From contig JACQSD010000025.1 of NCBI GenBank assembly GCA_016206165.1, positions 1 through 35,326 on the forward strand: a stretch of DNA of 35,326 nucleotides, read 5' to 3'. The stretch comes from Candidatus Uhrbacteria bacterium (GTDB taxonomy: Bacteria > Patescibacteriota > Patescibacteriia > JACQSD01). The notes under the pieces are model-generated. The model ran no database searches. It saw only the letters and a program-made list of their open reading frames with translations, and was not told the origin of the DNA. Below are positions 1-7,212 of this stretch, one piece after another; positions within the stretch are counted from its first letter, which is position 1, and each line of letters begins with the position of its first letter. The position numbers and the translations under genes were made by a program.

Positions 1-1940
1 ACATCTGACATCTGACATCTGACATTTGACTGACACTGGTAGTATTTTTTAAAACCGAATTCGCGGATGGCAGCGGCAGAGACCGCTTGATTTGCGAGGA
101 CAATATACGGCTCGCCACCTGCGTTGTCTTCGATCCAATGGACTGCGGCGATATCTGATTGGCTCGTATTGAACCCACGGCTTACCGAATAACTATCCAC
201 ATTCTGCGGATAGGTGAGGTAGAGCGACGCGGTCATCGCGAGTGCAAGCACTGCAGGCGCTCCCGCTGCTATTGCAGACCTCACCCATCTCCCTCTCCTC
301 ATAGGAGAGGGGCCGAAGGCGGGCCGAGCTGGCACAGGCCCAGGGAAGGGTGAGGTTTCCAGAACGACAGCAGAAAGTATTTTGTCTATCCACCAGTCGA
401 ATCCAATGAGGAAGAAGGGGATGAGGAAGAAGTATGCGATGTCGAGCAGGCGATCTGCGTAATCGGTTTGTTCGTAGCCGATTAAAAAATTGAAGGAGAG
501 GAATCCAGCCATGAAGATGTATGATACGAGGAGGATGAAGAAACACCTGACACCTGACACTTGACACCTGACACCTTTTTTATTTTTCCACCACGAGATA
601 AATCCAGTGATGATAAAGAACCAGAAGATATTTTTTGCATTAAAAGCGTAAAAGTAGAGAAGGTCCCATGGTGCGTGGAAACGATTTTCACGATAGATAC
701 CCGTCCATTCAATCGATTGGAGCCAATGGAGAAAGTTTTGTGGCGCCCAGGTGATATGGATCGAGGAAGAGAATTGGGCAATGAGGAGGAAGGCAGCAGG
801 GATAGCAGTGGCAGCAAACACATAACACATAACACAGAACACATAACTTTTTTTTGATTGGATGAGGCGGAGCAGTAAGAGAATAAATGCAGGAATACCG
901 GCAAGTGGGTGAACGAGCAGTATAGCGAGCGCAATGAGCCAGTTTGTTATATGTTTTGTGTTATATGCTATATGAAATATGAGAACGACAAGTAACAAAT
1001 TCGCAAGCGCCTGCGGTGTGGTGATGGTGAATTGAGCAAGGAAAAAAGGAAGGAGGAGTATTCCGAATATGGAGTATGCGCGCTCAGGGTCCTGCCGCTC
1101 CGTACCCCCATCGTGCTCGCTGTCGCTCCGCGCGAATGGGGGGCCCCCACTCCGCGTCACCCTTCGCTTCCACCAATGCCCGATTGCCCACGGAATGAAC
1201 AGTGCAGCAAGGATGGGAACAAGGAGTGTATCGATCCACGCGATCGAGACAGAGAGAAATTTCGAGAGAAAAACAACGAGACTGTATTGTCCAATGTAGT
1301 AGAGCGGTTTTGGAGTCACCACACCCTCTACTGCAATCAATTTTTCCGTCGCTTGATGAATGAACGAATCAAAGCCGTAGCCGATCGGGAAGACTATCCA
1401 TCCGATTGATACAATGAGAAAAAAGAGGAGTGCGATAATACGAATCGTCGATTTGATCGACGGGTTATCGCGATACGCATGGACGAGGTAAATGCCAAAA
1501 CAAGAGAGGAGAAAGAATAATGGGAAAATAATCCATGGAATTCGGTCCCACGGCGACCGCACCGCATCAGTGATCGGGGATCGTGCGAGGATGGCGATGA
1601 TCGTGATGAACAAAGCGACGAAGAGTGCGAAAATAATTTCCACCTTTGGGCGACTGCGGTACCACGCCACTTGATCGGCTGCGAAGGTACGAATATCGCG
1701 GAGCACTGCAACAAAGGTTCGCTTGAGGAGGAGGAATGTGATGATGAGTCCCGTGCTCATGAGTGCGATGACGAAGAAGGGGAGCCCCACGATGTAATAG
1801 AAAATCGTCCCTACAATACTCAAGCTCGAAATGAGCGTGAGTATGCCAATTCCTGAATAGAAAACAATGCTTTCGCTCGGGTAAAGCCGTTTTCCAATCG
1901 TCAGGCCTAGCGCAAGGAGAAAGAGAATACTGATGAATGT
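1..1940 (-). CDS. Large multi-spanning membrane protein (glycosyltransferase-like), truncated by window edge; apparent frameshift near the N-terminus
   Basis: Minus-strand frame stays open from ~1940 to the window start (e.g. FLLALGLTIGKRLYPSESIVFYSGIGILTLISSLSIVGTIFYYIVGLPFFVIALMSTGLIITFLLL... and ...FLIGYEQTDYADRLLDIAYFFLIPFFLIGFDWWIDK...). Many TM-like segments. Not in the ORF track because it has no stop inside the window. Confidence 0.75.
279..355. repeat. CCCTCTCCTC-R-TAGGAGAGGG...AGGGTGAGG palindromic repeat, copy 1
   Basis: Same core as at 11721-11752; lies inside the open frame of the membrane protein. Confidence 0.7.
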
Positions 1941-1952
1941 CATACGCTTTCA

Positions 1953-2005
1953 GTATAGCAGACTTTACAAAATCTTTGACAGAATGGTTTTTTTGTGGTA
2001 GGATT
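1953..2005. promoter_or_regulatory. Divergent promoter region
   Basis: Plus: TTGACA (1977-1982), 17-nt spacer, TAGGAT (2000-2005). Minus: TGTCAA over the same hexamer, 18 nt, TATACT (complement of 1953-1958). Confidence 0.6.
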
Positions 2006-2038
2006 TTGTCAATAAGATCGCAGCATTATTTTTTTAGT

Positions 2039-3004
2039 ATGTATAAACCAGACTCCGAACCAAAACGACGAATACATGACGGGAATCTTTTAACGTTCCT
2101 GCGCGATGCTGCGGAGCCAAATGGCGCCGATGCCTATGATTGCGACCCTGTTGCTGGATATATCAGTGAGGTGCATGTCATCCAAGGTCCAATGAAGGCT
2201 GCGCATGCAACGAGGCTTGCGCGTATTCAGGAAAACGCTACAGCGCGACAGGAACGACAGGAGGGGGAATTTCGGGAAGAATTTGGGAACGTACGTGGCC
2301 AACGACGTGCGGAAGGGAAAGAGCAAGCGGATGTCGATGGGGAACTCTATGTGCGCATGGTGACCGCACTGAACCAGGCGAATGCATGGCTTGGAGTTGA
2401 TGGGCACCTTTCGGTGACACACAAAAGCGATGATTGGACAAAAGGGAGTGATCTTATTCTCACATTGCCGGGCCCAAATGGGCAGCCAGTGCGACTTGCC
2501 ATTGATATGACGGTTGCAAAAAGTGATGACGTTGTGAATAAAAAACTTGATCGTATTTTCGAAACAATAAAAGATGGAAAGATGACAACCGTCGAGTATT
2601 TTGAGGATCCAGAGACGCACCAGAAGGAAAAACTTGAAATGATTCCGCGTGTGGTGGTCCCGATTGGTGAGGAGGGTCTGCAAAAATTACGGGACATCAC
2701 GGCACAGTTTTTTTCTGGAGAGAAGCGTGTGTGGGGTGAAGAGACGGGATTTCCAAAAGCTTTTCTTGATACCATCATTGGAGAATTGGAAGGATTCATT
2801 CACGTGCTTGAGCGTGCTGCGGCTGCAAAGACACTTCCTGACAAGGCAATGAAGAACAAGGATCACATGATTGAAAAGATGCGCGTGATCCTCGCGCCGC
2901 TTCGCGAGCTCCGAAATTCGAAAGACATTACAAAGCTCGGGAGATGGGAATTGGATGAGCGGCAACTCTATGTGTTGGATTATGTACAAGGGCTCGCTGC
3001 ATAA
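2039..3004 (+). CDS. Hypothetical protein (~321 aa), conserved-looking, unknown function
   Basis: ORF 1937..3004; ATG at 2039 (MYKPDSEPKRRIHDGN...) lies downstream of a TTGACA-N17-TAGGAT promoter. Confidence 0.75.
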   Translation: MYKPDSEPKRRIHDGNLLTFLRDAAEPNGADAYDCDPVAGYISEVHVIQGPMKAAHATRLARIQENATARQERQEGEFREEFGNVRGQRRAEGKEQADVDGELYVRMVTALNQANAWLGVDGHLSVTHKSDDWTKGSDLILTLPGPNGQPVRLAIDMTVAKSDDVVNKKLDRIFETIKDGKMTTVEYFEDPETHQKEKLEMIPRVVVPIGEEGLQKLRDITAQFFSGEKRVWGEETGFPKAFLDTIIGELEGFIHVLERAAAAKTLPDKAMKNKDHMIEKMRVILAPLRELRNSKDITKLGRWELDERQLYVLDYVQGLAA

Positions 3005-3031: not shown

Positions 3032-3060
3032 GAAGGCGCTTCTTTAAGGGAAGCGCCTTC
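3032..3060. terminator. Bidirectional hairpin terminator between convergent genes
   Basis: GAAGGCGCTTC-tttaagg-GAAGCGCCTTC, 11-bp perfect stem between the stops of 2039..3004(+) and 3061..3243(-). Confidence 0.75.
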
Positions 3061-3243
3061 TTAGTTTGGCCGTTCGCGGGCCGCTTTCTCGGCGGCGAGT
3101 TGCGCGAGCCATTCCTCGATCTTCCGCCGCATGAGTGGGCGAATATCGGGGATGATCTCGCAGTCTGGGTGCAGGGGGAGTGGATGCTCCCCTGGTATTG
3201 CTGGGCCACGGGGGGCCCAGCGCTCGTTGCTCTGGTCCCCCAT
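3061..3243 (-). CDS. Small GC-rich protein (60 aa), unknown function
   Basis: MGDQSNERWAPRGPAIPGEHPLPLHPDCEIIPDIRPLMRRKIEEWLAQLAAEKAARERPN. AAGGAGG Shine-Dalgarno 6 nt upstream of ATG, promoter upstream, terminator downstream. Confidence 0.7.
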   Translation of the reverse strand: MGDQSNERWAPRGPAIPGEHPLPLHPDCEIIPDIRPLMRRKIEEWLAQLAAEKAARERPN

Positions 3244-3356: not shown

Positions 3357-3385
3357 TTGACGGCATTTTGGAAAGCGCGTAGGCA
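3357..3385 (+). promoter_or_regulatory. Candidate promoter of the structured RNA
   Basis: TTGACG - 17 nt - TAGGCA, just upstream of the base-paired region. Confidence 0.4.
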
Positions 3386-3391
3386 GTAAAT

Positions 3392-4336
3392 TACCGTCGC
3401 AAATTTTCGTTCCTTTCAATCAACCCAAACCAACCAGTTTAAAACTGGATTCGACAAGGGTTACGAGATCAAGCAGGACACCCACATGTTTCTCGCAGAG
3501 AGAAACACGCCTCGAGCAATTGAGCCCTCTTCTCGCCAAGGAAGGTGACGACGGGAAATCAACCCGACGCCGCTCGACAAAGCAGGAAGTATCTCCGGCT
3601 CCGCCTCCAAACGGAACCCGGGAGAAAGCCAAGGCTCAATTGGCACGAGATCGCAACTCTTCGGAGTGGCGATTAAGGAAATGGGTAGAGGCTTACCAAA
3701 GAGGACAGATTCCACAATGTGGCTGCCTCCGGGTAGCTTCAGCGAGGAATCCCAGCAAACGGACCATGGTATACACGGTTCTGGTCACCTCTCTTGGTTC
3801 AACCTGCTGCGCAAAGGATACTCTTCCGACCAGATCGATGCAGATGACGCGGGATGATAACTGCGTCCAAAGCATACACGAGGTCGGAACGAAAATCCTA
3901 AAGCGCGAGTCTCAAACCTGAGAGTGTGAGAAGAAGGTCATTAAGAGACCTTCGGAACCTTCTCACAATACTCTCTCCCCATCTGGAACCCCCCATGAAT
4001 TCCAATGCCAATGGAAACGCTCCCGTAAAACGGAGAATATTCAACGGCAACGGAAGGGCCTGAACGAGTCGACGGACTCAATTAGGACTCAAATAGGGAA
4101 AACCAGATCGATCAACGGGGAAAAACCTCGACATACGGCTCGGGTATCAGTCTTCCTGCTCCAGGAAGCACCCGAGCAATCCTGAATATGTTTCGTTACC
4201 AAGAGCTGCAAACTCAAGGCGACGGAATACTTCCCCCCATAAGGGATAGGGAAAACGTATGTGCCCTTTGTCGAATCTTCTTCGGCCCAGGTAGTAAACT
4301 CGCAACGCGAGTGGACTACCTGGGCCTTCTTTTTTT
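3392..4336 (+). ncRNA. Candidate large structured non-coding RNA (~0.9 kb)
   Basis: No credible ORF. Local hairpins: 3650-3673 (ATCGC-a-ACTC-UUCG-GAGT-g-GCGAT), 3926-3966 (GTGAGAAG/CTTCTCAC enclosing GAAGGTC/GACCTTC), 4138-4177 (GCTCGGGT/ACCCGAGC plus CTTCCTG/CAGGAAG). Long-range complements: 3403-3413 with 3886-3896 (11 nt), 3517-3526 with 3633-3642 (10 nt). Ends in a strong terminator. Confidence 0.65.
4284..4336 (+). terminator. Intrinsic terminator
   Basis: GGCCCAGGTAGT aa ACTCGC aac GCGAGT gg ACTACCTGGGCC followed by ttcttttttt. Confidence 0.9.
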
Positions 4337-4368
4337 GTAACCGGCCATGCGTGCTATACTGTAGAGAC

Positions 4369-4959
4369 ATGCGATTTCAGTCATCTCAACGATCACACGA
4401 GCAACTCTTTTTTACTGATCGCCTGCTTGCGGCGACGGTGTTGCGTTTGTTTCCACGATGGGTGCGGCCGAATGATGTGACCGTATTCCGGATGCTCGCG
4501 ACGCCGTTTGTGTTGTGGTTGATCATCGTGCAGAATTACGTGTGGGGAATTCCTGTTTTTTTGCTTGTCGCGTTTACCGATGCGATCGATGGCGCGCTCG
4601 CGCGGACACGCAATCAAATTACCGATTGGGGGAAGCTCTATGATCCGCTTGCGGATAAACTACTCATTGGTTCGGTTGTTGCTGTTGTTGTCCTCCAACA
4701 TCTTGATCTCTGGCTTGGCATAGCGATTCTCGGCATTGAAAGTACATTTATCCTTGGCGCATGGTATTTTAAGTGGAGAGGAATGATCGTGCAGGCGAAT
4801 GTGTGGGGGAAGATCAAGATGATTTTGGAAGTACTCGCCGTTTTCTTATTGCTCCTATCGCTCATGATGCAATGGCCATCACTCCTTCCATTTTCACAGG
4901 CGACATTTATGCTCGCGATCGCATTCGCCCTTGTTAGTTTAGTGACCTATGGAATTTAA
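4369..4959 (+). CDS. CDP-alcohol phosphatidyltransferase family protein (PgsA-like)
   Basis: CDP-OH-P transferase motif D-A-I-D-G-A-L-A-R...G...D-P-L-A-D (TDAIDGALARTRNQITDWGKLYDPLADK); TM segments. Confidence 0.88.
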   Translation: MRFQSSQRSHEQLFFTDRLLAATVLRLFPRWVRPNDVTVFRMLATPFVLWLIIVQNYVWGIPVFLLVAFTDAIDGALARTRNQITDWGKLYDPLADKLLIGSVVAVVVLQHLDLWLGIAILGIESTFILGAWYFKWRGMIVQANVWGKIKMILEVLAVFLLLLSLMMQWPSLLPFSQATFMLAIAFALVSLVTYGI

Positions 4960-6610
4960 CGAAACGAAAGAACTGACAAACCAAAAAACGAAAGAACGTT
5001 CATCCGTTCATTCGTTCATCCGTTCATTCGTACCTTGGTCACACGCCTTCTTGATGGCTGGGGCAGTTTTGTTTTTTCTCGTCACATCGTATTTTTCATT
5101 TCAATTACAAAATCCATACAGCAGTCCGGATGAAACCGCGCAAGCCTACTTTATTCAACAGTATGCAACCACGGGAACGTTGCGCGTCGCGGAACCGTTG
5201 AATGCGGTCGTCGAGAATATTATCCATCCGCGGTCGATGAATGTGTTTGATCATGATCTTGTTCCAGGATCGTTTATTGGTCTCATTCTTATCTACGGAT
5301 GGATTGCCTGGTTGCTTGGGATGTGGGTAGTTCCTTTTTTAACGCCGCTCGTGGCGACATTTGGTGCGGTTGCTTTTTTCTCGATCGTTCGTTTCTTTTT
5401 TTCTGATCGTGTTGCACGGTGGTCATTTTTCATACTCCTCTTGCACCCGGCGTATGTGTACTACTCCTCGCGCTCACTTCTCTCAGCGAATGTTTTTTTC
5501 ATATCGATGCTCATGATTGGTGTCGCGGTACTCCTTACACACCACGAACGATGGACGGCATGGGCGATTGGTGGTGTTTCCATTGGCGCGAGTCTTATCG
5601 CACGCACAACGGAGGCCGGGTGGGTTCTGGGTGTATTTTTCCTTGTCATTCTTTATTTCCGGCAGCGCATTCACGTACGTCATCTCTTTATCTTTTTTTT
5701 CGCGGTGATCTTTGCTTTTCTTCCGGTGCTCGCACACCAAGCACTCCTGTACGGGCACGCACTGACCACAGGGTATGCGCAGGGAGGGGAGTCGATCGTG
5801 CCCCTCATCTCCCCATGGAGATTTTCATCGCCAGTGCGCGCAATCATCAGCGCATTTGTTCTTCCATTTGGGTTTGACGCTGCGAATATACTCAAGAATG
5901 CGTACGAGTATCTTGTCCTCCTTTTTTGGTGGTTGACGATTCCTGCACTCCTCGGGATTGTGATAATGATACGAAAGAACGAAAGGACGCGCGAACGAAA
6001 GAACAGTTCTTCCGTTTCTTGGTTCATCGGTTCTTTCGTTTTCATTGCTTTGTGGCTCGTCGTGTACTATGGCTCCTCTACGTTTCGTGATAGTCCGTTG
6101 CCATCGCCGACGATTGGAACAGCATATGTTCGTTACTGGCTTCCTCTTTTTGTGTTGAGCATCCCATTTATGGCTATTGCGTTTCAATCCATCACAACGC
6201 GTTGGTTTCAGACGTGTGTGGTTACGGCTTGTGCGCTCTTCTCGATCGCATCCACGTTTGTACTCACGCAGGAGAGTTTGTGGTGGATGCGTGCATCGAC
6301 CCGAAAACAGCGTGTGATCGCAGTAGAAATTTTGACCATTGTTCCATCGAATGGAGTCATTCTCACGGAAAGTTCAGACAAATTATTTTTTCCATCGCGC
6401 CGGGTGATGCAGTTTGATCCAAAAGAGCAACTGAAGATTGAGCGGTTGCTTGCCCGCGTTGCGGAGCGTGTGCCGGTGTATTTTTATACGAGCCTTGCGC
6501 CACGTGGAATTGAGTATTTGAATACGCGCCACCTTGCAAAGTATGGAGTAGCGTGGGAAGATGCAAAGAAAATAGGAGCGTTGACACTCTACAAATTACA
6601 ACGACAGTGA
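4949..6610 (+). CDS. Multi-spanning membrane glycosyltransferase-like protein (GT39/ArnT-like architecture)
   Basis: 553 aa, many TM segments, N-terminal ...SSPDETAQAYFIQQYATTGTLRV... resembles the acidic first-loop motif of GT-C enzymes. Confidence 0.65.
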   Translation: MEFNETKELTNQKTKERSSVHSFIRSFVPWSHAFLMAGAVLFFLVTSYFSFQLQNPYSSPDETAQAYFIQQYATTGTLRVAEPLNAVVENIIHPRSMNVFDHDLVPGSFIGLILIYGWIAWLLGMWVVPFLTPLVATFGAVAFFSIVRFFFSDRVARWSFFILLLHPAYVYYSSRSLLSANVFFISMLMIGVAVLLTHHERWTAWAIGGVSIGASLIARTTEAGWVLGVFFLVILYFRQRIHVRHLFIFFFAVIFAFLPVLAHQALLYGHALTTGYAQGGESIVPLISPWRFSSPVRAIISAFVLPFGFDAANILKNAYEYLVLLFWWLTIPALLGIVIMIRKNERTRERKNSSSVSWFIGSFVFIALWLVVYYGSSTFRDSPLPSPTIGTAYVRYWLPLFVLSIPFMAIAFQSITTRWFQTCVVTACALFSIASTFVLTQESLWWMRASTRKQRVIAVEILTIVPSNGVILTESSDKLFFPSRRVMQFDPKEQLKIERLLARVAERVPVYFYTSLAPRGIEYLNTRHLAKYGVAWEDAKKIGALTLYKLQRQ

Positions 6611-6612
6611 AT

Positions 6613-7212
6613 ATGTCTTTTCGGCGCTTTCAATTCGTGATTCGCATTATACTCATCATCATCCCCGTGATTCTCTTTTTTTGGCTGCTTGCAAAAGATT
6701 TTGTGGTCACCGGAAGACTTGTCGTTGAATACGATTTTTCGAACGATTCACCATTCATTCGCCACCTGCGATCACCCGACAATGTTGGTCGGATTCAGCT
6801 GAATAAGGTCAATCGTGACTCTACACAAAGTATGAAGAGAGATCCGGTAACTTTTGACGTGCAACTCCCGCGTCGGTTTGTACGTACTATTGTTGAACTT
6901 CGCTACACAAAAAATCCGGAACAAGAGTTTCGTCTCGGTTTGCAGCGTCGAAAAGGAACGGTGAGTCCTGAACTCCATGATCTTGCTCTCGTTGGCACTG
7001 ATGGACCGTGGACGATCGGTACTGCAACATTTGATCATCTTGAGCGTTTTGATTTTTCGAAAGACCGATATCAATTTTTCTTGAGTGCACCAGGGCTCAC
7101 ACGATCAAAAGATCCCATTCTCTTGACCTCGATTCGGATCATCTTTGAACGTGAACCATGGACGATGAATAATTTTTTCCCACGCGTATGGAATTTCTTC
7201 AAAAGAAAATAG
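6613..7212 (+). CDS. Hypothetical protein with N-terminal membrane anchor
   Basis: MSFRRFQFVIRIILIIIPVILFFWLLAKDF... single TM then soluble domain. Confidence 0.65.
   Translation: MSFRRFQFVIRIILIIIPVILFFWLLAKDFVVTGRLVVEYDFSNDSPFIRHLRSPDNVGRIQLNKVNRDSTQSMKRDPVTFDVQLPRRFVRTIVELRYTKNPEQEFRLGLQRRKGTVSPELHDLALVGTDGPWTIGTATFDHLERFDFSKDRYQFFLSAPGLTRSKDPILLTSIRIIFEREPWTMNNFFPRVWNFFKRK

What the first reader, a model, noticed from the sequence alone, without database searches (positions are those of the whole stretch)
3392..4336. Large structured non-coding RNA candidate
~0.9 kb without a credible ORF but dense in stems: a UUCG-capped hairpin at 3650-3673, a two-tier hairpin at 3926-3966, a long hairpin at 4138-4177, and long-range pairings spanning ~480 nt (attttcgttcc 3403-3413 with ggaacgaaaat 3886-3896) and ~120 nt (3517-3526 with 3633-3642). 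It ends in a strong terminator and has a candidate promoter at 3357-3385. The size recalls giant bacterial RNAs (OLE, GOLLD, ROOL), but I cannot assign it to any of them.
Basis: seen in the sequence. Interest (0 to 1): 0.78.

Follow-up and report, generated by a model that had tools for sequence, protein, structure and literature searches.

The report
Orphan 830-base structured RNA candidate
A roughly 0.9-kilobase stretch of a tiny-genome (Patescibacteria) bacterium codes for no protein but looks like the gene of a large, elaborately folded RNA of no known family; the folding signal is strong, but no relatives were found and expression and function are untested.

Summary
Window 3386-4336 has no credible ORF and folds far better than shuffled sequence, with a well-defined fold comparable to the RNase P RNA of the same genome. 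The predicted core is 3448-4277: a 14-bp closing helix and four domains, about 830 nt, followed by an 18-bp intrinsic terminator. Rfam gives no useful match, so no membership in OLE, GOLLD, ROOL, RNase P, tmRNA or intron families is detectable. No relative appeared in about 750 patescibacterial genomes by BLAST, in 363 genomes with a single-sequence covariance model, or in phages, plasmids or viral contigs, so covariation is untestable here. In relatives the flanking genes are adjacent, so the RNA, a 355-aa ORF and a 60-aa ORF form a lineage-specific ~2.3-kb insertion. Best reading: the gene of an orphan large structured non-coding RNA, probably a structural or RNP scaffold like OLE, GOLLD or ROOL (inferred). 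Main rival: structured but functionless intergenic DNA, because several other intergenic regions of this genome also fold unusually well. New candidate of a known kind, moderate interest.

The parts
3357..3385 (+). weak candidate promoter, TTGACG-N17-TAGGCA
   Evidence: Score 5.3, below the genomic median of 6.75; TTGAC+17+TAG is enriched in this genome but the last -10 base is not T.
3386..3434 (+). single-stranded leader of the RNA
   Evidence: Unpaired in MFE; 3386-3447 z 0.0.
3435..3447 (+). small hairpin next to the closing helix
   Evidence: p = 0.87.
3448..4277 (+). predicted structured core, about 830 nt
   Evidence: MFE -320 vs -243 +/- 8.6; 43% vs 17% of bases in p>0.9 pairs.
3448..3461 (+). 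closing helix P1, 5' strand (pairs with 4263-4277)
   Evidence: 10+4 bp, p 0.87/0.81; inverted repeat I3, 13 nt at 92%.
3465..3913 (+). domain I, multibranched; includes arm 3809-3906, and arms 3480-3686 and 3688-3801 whose fold is less certain
   Evidence: z -5.8 for the domain; arm 3809-3906 z -7.0; the other two z -2.7 and -1.9.
3650..3673 (+). UUCG-capped hairpin
   Evidence: p 0.96-0.97.
3920..3975 (+). three-tier hairpin domain
   Evidence: z -5.1; p 0.85-0.98.
3976..4121 (+). domain II with 4-bp helices separated by A-rich internal loops
   Evidence: z -4.1; helices.
4131..4262 (+). domain III, includes hairpin 4138-4177
   Evidence: z -5.0, ensemble diversity 0.022 vs 0.212; used for covariance model R1.
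4263..4277 (+). closing helix P1, 3' strand
4284..4336 (+). intrinsic terminator of the RNA
   Evidence: 12+6 bp stem (p about 1) and TTCTTTTTTT tail.
1937..3004 (+). 355-aa ORF upstream (likely start at 2039); in the same insertion, not shown to act with the RNA
   Evidence: Codon score +0.19; family in 35 of 381 class genomes, no similar RNA found in the flanks of the loci fetched.
3061..3243 (-). possible 60-aa ORF, divergent from the RNA, with an AAGGAGGG ribosome-binding site
   Evidence: Codon score +0.118; no homolog found.

Best explanation
Window 3386-4336 is the gene of an independently terminated, large non-coding RNA with a structured core of about 830 nt (3448-4277): a long closing helix joins the two ends and four domains radiate from a central junction. 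It most likely works as a structural RNA, either as the scaffold of a ribonucleoprotein or as a self-assembling RNA particle, in the manner of OLE, GOLLD and ROOL, rather than as an mRNA or a leader of the next gene. Shown here: the absence of coding signal, the unusually stable and well-defined predicted fold, the terminator, and the lineage-specific insertion between two genes that are adjacent in relatives. Inferred: transcription, the exact ends, conservation of the structure, and the scaffold role.
For: Folding z of -8.9 to -10.8, low ensemble diversity and 43% of bases in p>0.9 pairs, matched by the genome's own RNase P RNA (z -10.5) and not by coding windows of similar size (z +1.9 to -3.0). 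Every domain is significant on its own except two arms of domain I. Only 10 of 266 predicted pairs lie in helices of 10 bp or more, so the energy comes from many short helices, as in ornate RNAs, not from a few palindromes. Unpaired bases on the + strand are 52% A, against 47 +/- 1% in shuffles. Strong terminator after the closing helix. No coding signal. pgsA has its own -10-like TATACT 8 nt upstream of its ATG, after the terminator, so the RNA does not look like its leader. Synteny on both sides with relatives argues against misassembly.
Against: No homolog in any collection searched, so no covariation. The promoter is weak. Other intergenic regions of this genome also fold much better than shuffles, some as strongly per base, so the z-score alone does not prove function. 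No expression data.
Confidence: 0.6

Rival explanations
1. Structured but functionless intergenic DNA: hairpin-rich, decaying insertion debris that folds well by chance and by local palindromes, with no selected RNA.
For: The median intergenic region of this genome already folds better than shuffles, and several 0.6-1 kb intergenic regions reach similar or stronger per-base values. No homologs anywhere. Weak promoter.
Against: The other strong regions examined get more of their energy from long hairpins (25-56 pairs in helices of 10 bp or more, against 10 here); some hold RNase P or rRNA sequence or dispersed repeats, whereas this region is single-copy apart from its own terminator palindrome. 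Multi-domain organisation closed by one long-range helix and followed by a terminator is not expected from debris.
Confidence: 0.18
2. Remnant or ORF-less form of a self-splicing intron or other RNA-containing mobile element that inserted between the 647-aa gene and pgsA.
For: The region is an insertion relative to relatives; large central-junction fold; a 355-aa accessory ORF lies in the same insertion.
Against: No group I or group II intron match in Rfam with permissive filters; no reverse transcriptase or endonuclease family recognised nearby; the 355-aa family occurs elsewhere in the class without any RNA of this kind; not multi-copy in the genome.
Confidence: 0.1
3. Very long regulatory leader (attenuator or riboswitch-like) of pgsA, with the terminator as the off-switch.
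For: The terminator ends 32 nt before the pgsA start, on the same strand.
Against: pgsA carries its own TATACT element at 4355-4360, consistent with a leaderless transcript starting at about 4367; 0.9 kb is far longer than usual leaders; relatives have no such leader at the same gene; no antiterminator competing with the terminator stem (p about 1) was seen; no riboswitch match.
Confidence: 0.07
4. A strongly diverged and enlarged housekeeping RNA (tmRNA or RNase P RNA).
For: CTGGATTCGAC at 3445-3455 equals the 5' motif of classical tmRNA (from memory), occurs once in the genome, and no tmRNA was found in this genome; its RNase P RNA is itself enlarged (677 nt).
Against: RNase P RNA is present elsewhere (C35:6283-6959, 100.1 bits). 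tmRNAs of relatives are 355-406 nt, mostly running GGGGAUG...CAUCUCCACCA; the window region has no acceptor stem, T-arm or tag ORF and no tmRNA model match. The motif is explained by helix P1. The genome is only 83% complete, so absence of tmRNA means little.
Confidence: 0.03

Closest known systems
[quoted passage not shown]
   Same: Size (many exceed 800 nt; the solved one has 833 residues, PMC12286853) and multi-domain complexity; function unknown.
   Different: No Rfam match; not next to tRNAs (none in the window) or recognisable phage genes; no homologs, whereas GOLLD has a universally conserved 3' region.
ROOL RNA
   Same: Large ornate non-coding RNA with no known protein partner.
   Different: No Rfam match; ROOL is phage/prophage-borne and often near tRNA islands (PMC12286853); neither seen here.
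OLE RNA
   Same: Large, elaborately structured non-coding RNA on a bacterial chromosome; the next gene here (pgsA-like) is a membrane-lipid enzyme, which is at most a suggestive neighbour.
   Different: No Rfam match; OLE is about 600 nt and known mostly from Bacillota (PMC9723947, PMC12054373); its protein partners were not looked for.
Bacterial RNase P RNA, class A
   Same: Comparable folding statistics; the copy in this genome serves as positive control.
   Different: Encoded elsewhere in the same genome; no match of this region to the model.

Membership tests
OLE / GOLLD / ROOL (Rfam families) | match to the family covariance model | tested here: not met
   cmscan: none at gathering score and none among the four chance-level matches at E up to 10.
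GOLLD / ROOL | phage/prophage or tRNA-island context | tested here: not met
   No tRNA in the window; no PHROGs match above chance for the five neighbouring ORFs scanned; no phage DNA match.
Large ornate bacterial RNA (functional kind, not one family) | long non-coding region with extensive secondary structure beyond chance | tested here: met
Large ornate bacterial RNA (functional kind, not one family) | structure supported by covariation among homologs | tested here: inconclusive
   No homolog found by BLAST or single-sequence covariance models, so covariation could not be computed.
Large ornate bacterial RNA (functional kind, not one family) | discrete transcript | not testable with these tools
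   No RNA-seq; terminator present, promoter weak.
tmRNA | tRNA-like domain and tag reading frame | tested here: not met
   ARAGORN none; no tag or T-loop motif in the region; no model match.
RNase P RNA | match to the RNase P covariance model | tested here: not met
   The genome's copy is at C35:6283-6959; no match here.
Group I / group II intron | catalytic-core model match | tested here: not met
   No match at E up to 10.

The most novel reading that the evidence does not exclude
A new class of giant structured RNA, specific to an undersampled lineage of Patescibacteria, possibly one of several unclassified large structured RNAs in a 0.84-Mb genome, that assembles into an RNA or RNP particle or acts as a ribozyme.
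Probability: 0.35. Interest if true: 0.8.

Novelty: new member of a known kind. Interest (0 to 1): 0.45.

Why it matters
Few large ornate bacterial RNAs are known, and their functions are mostly unsolved. One that devotes almost a kilobase to structure in a reduced genome, in a phylum with little RNA biology, would be a good target for cryo-EM and for asking whether RNA-only particles are common. At present it is a single-sequence prediction.

Tried and rejected
BLAST of the region against 381 class genomes, 380 phylum genomes and 8 genomes carrying the nearest pgsA: only 22-52 nt matches at E about 0.002-0.009; the places found, when inspected, had no further similarity to the RNA around them. 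Phage and plasmid records: none. Four exact-pattern scans of viral contigs: two single hits, not supported by R1, R2 or BLAST. Covariance models built from the single sequence: R1 (domain III) over 363 genomes and R2 (arm 3802-3914) over 38 genomes, plus part of the own genome, found only the window itself. The idea that the RNA belongs with the 355-aa ORF was rejected: the family is in 35 of 381 genomes and no flank examined resembles the RNA. Association with the 60-aa ORF: orphan, only chance-like matches. tmRNA idea: see rivals. A candidate pseudoknot (3536-3549 with 3784-3797, 14 nt at 86%) lies in the two arms that fold worst, but about one such repeat is expected by chance (own estimate), and a duplex test between the two arms gave P = 0.21. 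A larger folding survey of intergenic regions timed out and was repeated in reduced form.

Full report
SETTING. The window is contig C5 of an 836-kb, 92-contig genome, 83% complete. The best relatives of its pgsA-like gene are Magasanikbacteria and other Parcubacteria/Patescibacteria at 54-57% identity. No other genome of its own family or order appeared among the relatives searched; all were given as 'same class'. The order of genes is: 647-aa membrane protein (minus), 355-aa ORF (plus), bidirectional terminator 3032-3060, a possible 60-aa ORF (minus, 3061-3243), the RNA region, pgsA-like CDP-alcohol phosphatidyltransferase (4369-4959, Pfam E 3e-29), 553-aa membrane protein. In four relatives the 647-aa gene's homolog and pgsA are direct divergent neighbours with gaps of about 40-105 nt, and the gene after pgsA matches in three of them. 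The 355-aa ORF, the 60-aa ORF and the RNA are therefore a lineage-specific insertion of about 2.3 kb in authentic context.

OBSERVATION. The region has no coding signal: codon scores negative in all six frames, no Pfam match above cut-off in any frame with stops read as X, longest stop-free stretch only marginally long (P 0.05). It folds far beyond chance. The full region has MFE -360.4 against -277.8 +/- 7.7. The core 3448-4277 has MFE -320 against -243 +/- 8.6, half the ensemble diversity of shuffles, and 43% against 17% of bases in near-certain pairs. The genome's RNase P RNA, 677 nt, gives z -10.5 and 35% in the same test; protein-coding windows of 830-894 nt give z between +1.9 and -3.0. 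Folding is strong on both strands, as expected of complementary sequences; the + strand is preferred because of the terminator at 4284-4336 and because unpaired bases there are 52% A.

ANATOMY. A 10+4 bp helix (3448-3461 with 4263-4277) closes the core. Inside are domain I (3465-3913), a three-tier hairpin (3920-3975), domain II (3976-4121) and domain III (4131-4262), many helices having p above 0.9. Arms 3480-3686 and 3688-3801 of domain I are the least certain (z -2.7 and -1.9). The leader 3386-3434 is predicted single-stranded.

TRANSCRIPTION SIGNALS. The terminator is strong. The promoter TTGACG-N17-TAGGCA is weak by a general model. In this genome, intergenic TTGAC sites carry TANNNT at 16-18 nt in 84 of 217 cases against about 6% expected, and TAG often starts the -10 element; the candidate fits this except for its last base. 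pgsA has TATACT at 4355-4360, eight bases before its ATG, which suggests a leaderless transcript independent of the RNA.

RELATIVES. None found: Rfam, BLAST in 381 class and 380 phylum genomes and in the genomes with the nearest pgsA, phages and plasmids, viral contigs by pattern, covariance models of two domains. A single-sequence model finds only fairly close relatives, and near relatives of this genome are not in the collections, so absence of homologs is weak evidence against function; but it removes the decisive test, covariation.

HOW SPECIAL IS THE FOLDING SIGNAL? I surveyed other intergenic regions of the same genome. Many fold well; some match or exceed this region per base. Known causes include RNase P RNA and a 16S fragment, dispersed repeats and long hairpins. 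Some remain unexplained (C47:5247-5822 minus, C74:4737-5828 minus, C61:5331-6315 plus, C87:848-1827). This region stands out by spreading its energy over many short helices, by A-rich loops, and by one closing helix followed by a terminator. This survey is the main reason for not going above 0.6.

MECHANISM AND CLASSIFICATION. The most economical reading is a dedicated structural RNA. By analogy with OLE, GOLLD and ROOL, of which GOLLD and ROOL form RNA-only cages (PMC12286853), a scaffold or particle role is the best guess; nothing here shows it. It is not a detectable member of any of those families. It is best filed as a new candidate of a known kind.

Noticed in passing
L095 (G000 contig C35) 6283-6959 +: RNase P RNA of this genome spans 677 nt (model has 367 positions; 100.1 bits against a cut-off of 100), so it seems to carry large insertions; it has a consensus promoter TTGACA-N17-TATATT.
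   Followed up: partly
G000, whole genome: No tmRNA gene found by ARAGORN (most of the genome) or the Rfam tmRNA model, while 11 of 13 related genomes have one above the cut-off; the genome is 83% complete, so it may simply be missing.
   Followed up: partly
G000 C47:5247-5822 (-), C74:4737-5828 (-), C61:5331-6315 (+), C87:848-1827: Other intergenic regions that fold far better than shuffles without an Rfam match; the first three contain TTGACA-N17-TAGNAT promoter-like sequences and hairpins resembling terminators. Possibly further unclassified RNAs or structured leaders.
   Followed up: partly
window 290-363 (-) and many contigs (e.g. C61, C71, C85, C86, C22, C32): Dispersed repeat of about 70-110 nt in many places of the genome; the window copy (89% over 74 nt) lies inside the 647-aa ORF, reminiscent of palindromic elements inserted in genes.
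   Followed up: no
window 1937-3004 (+): 355-aa protein of an unnamed family in 35 of 381 class genomes, no Pfam, NCBIfam or PHROGs match; the conserved part holds DWTKGSDLILTL...LAIDMTVAK, which looks like a PD-(D/E)XK-type nuclease core (from memory, untested).
   Followed up: partly
window 3061-3243 (-): Orphan 60-aa ORF with a strong AAGGAGGG ribosome-binding site, divergent from the RNA; no homolog found.
   Followed up: yes
window 3445-3455 (+): CTGGATTCGAC, identical to the classical tmRNA 5' motif, here at the start of the closing helix; probably coincidence.
   Followed up: yes
L160 (C90) 6600-6746 +: Adenosylcobalamin riboswitch (65.5 bits) in this reduced genome.
   Followed up: no
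window 4355-4369 (+): TATACT eight bases before the pgsA start codon suggests leaderless transcription.
   Followed up: partly
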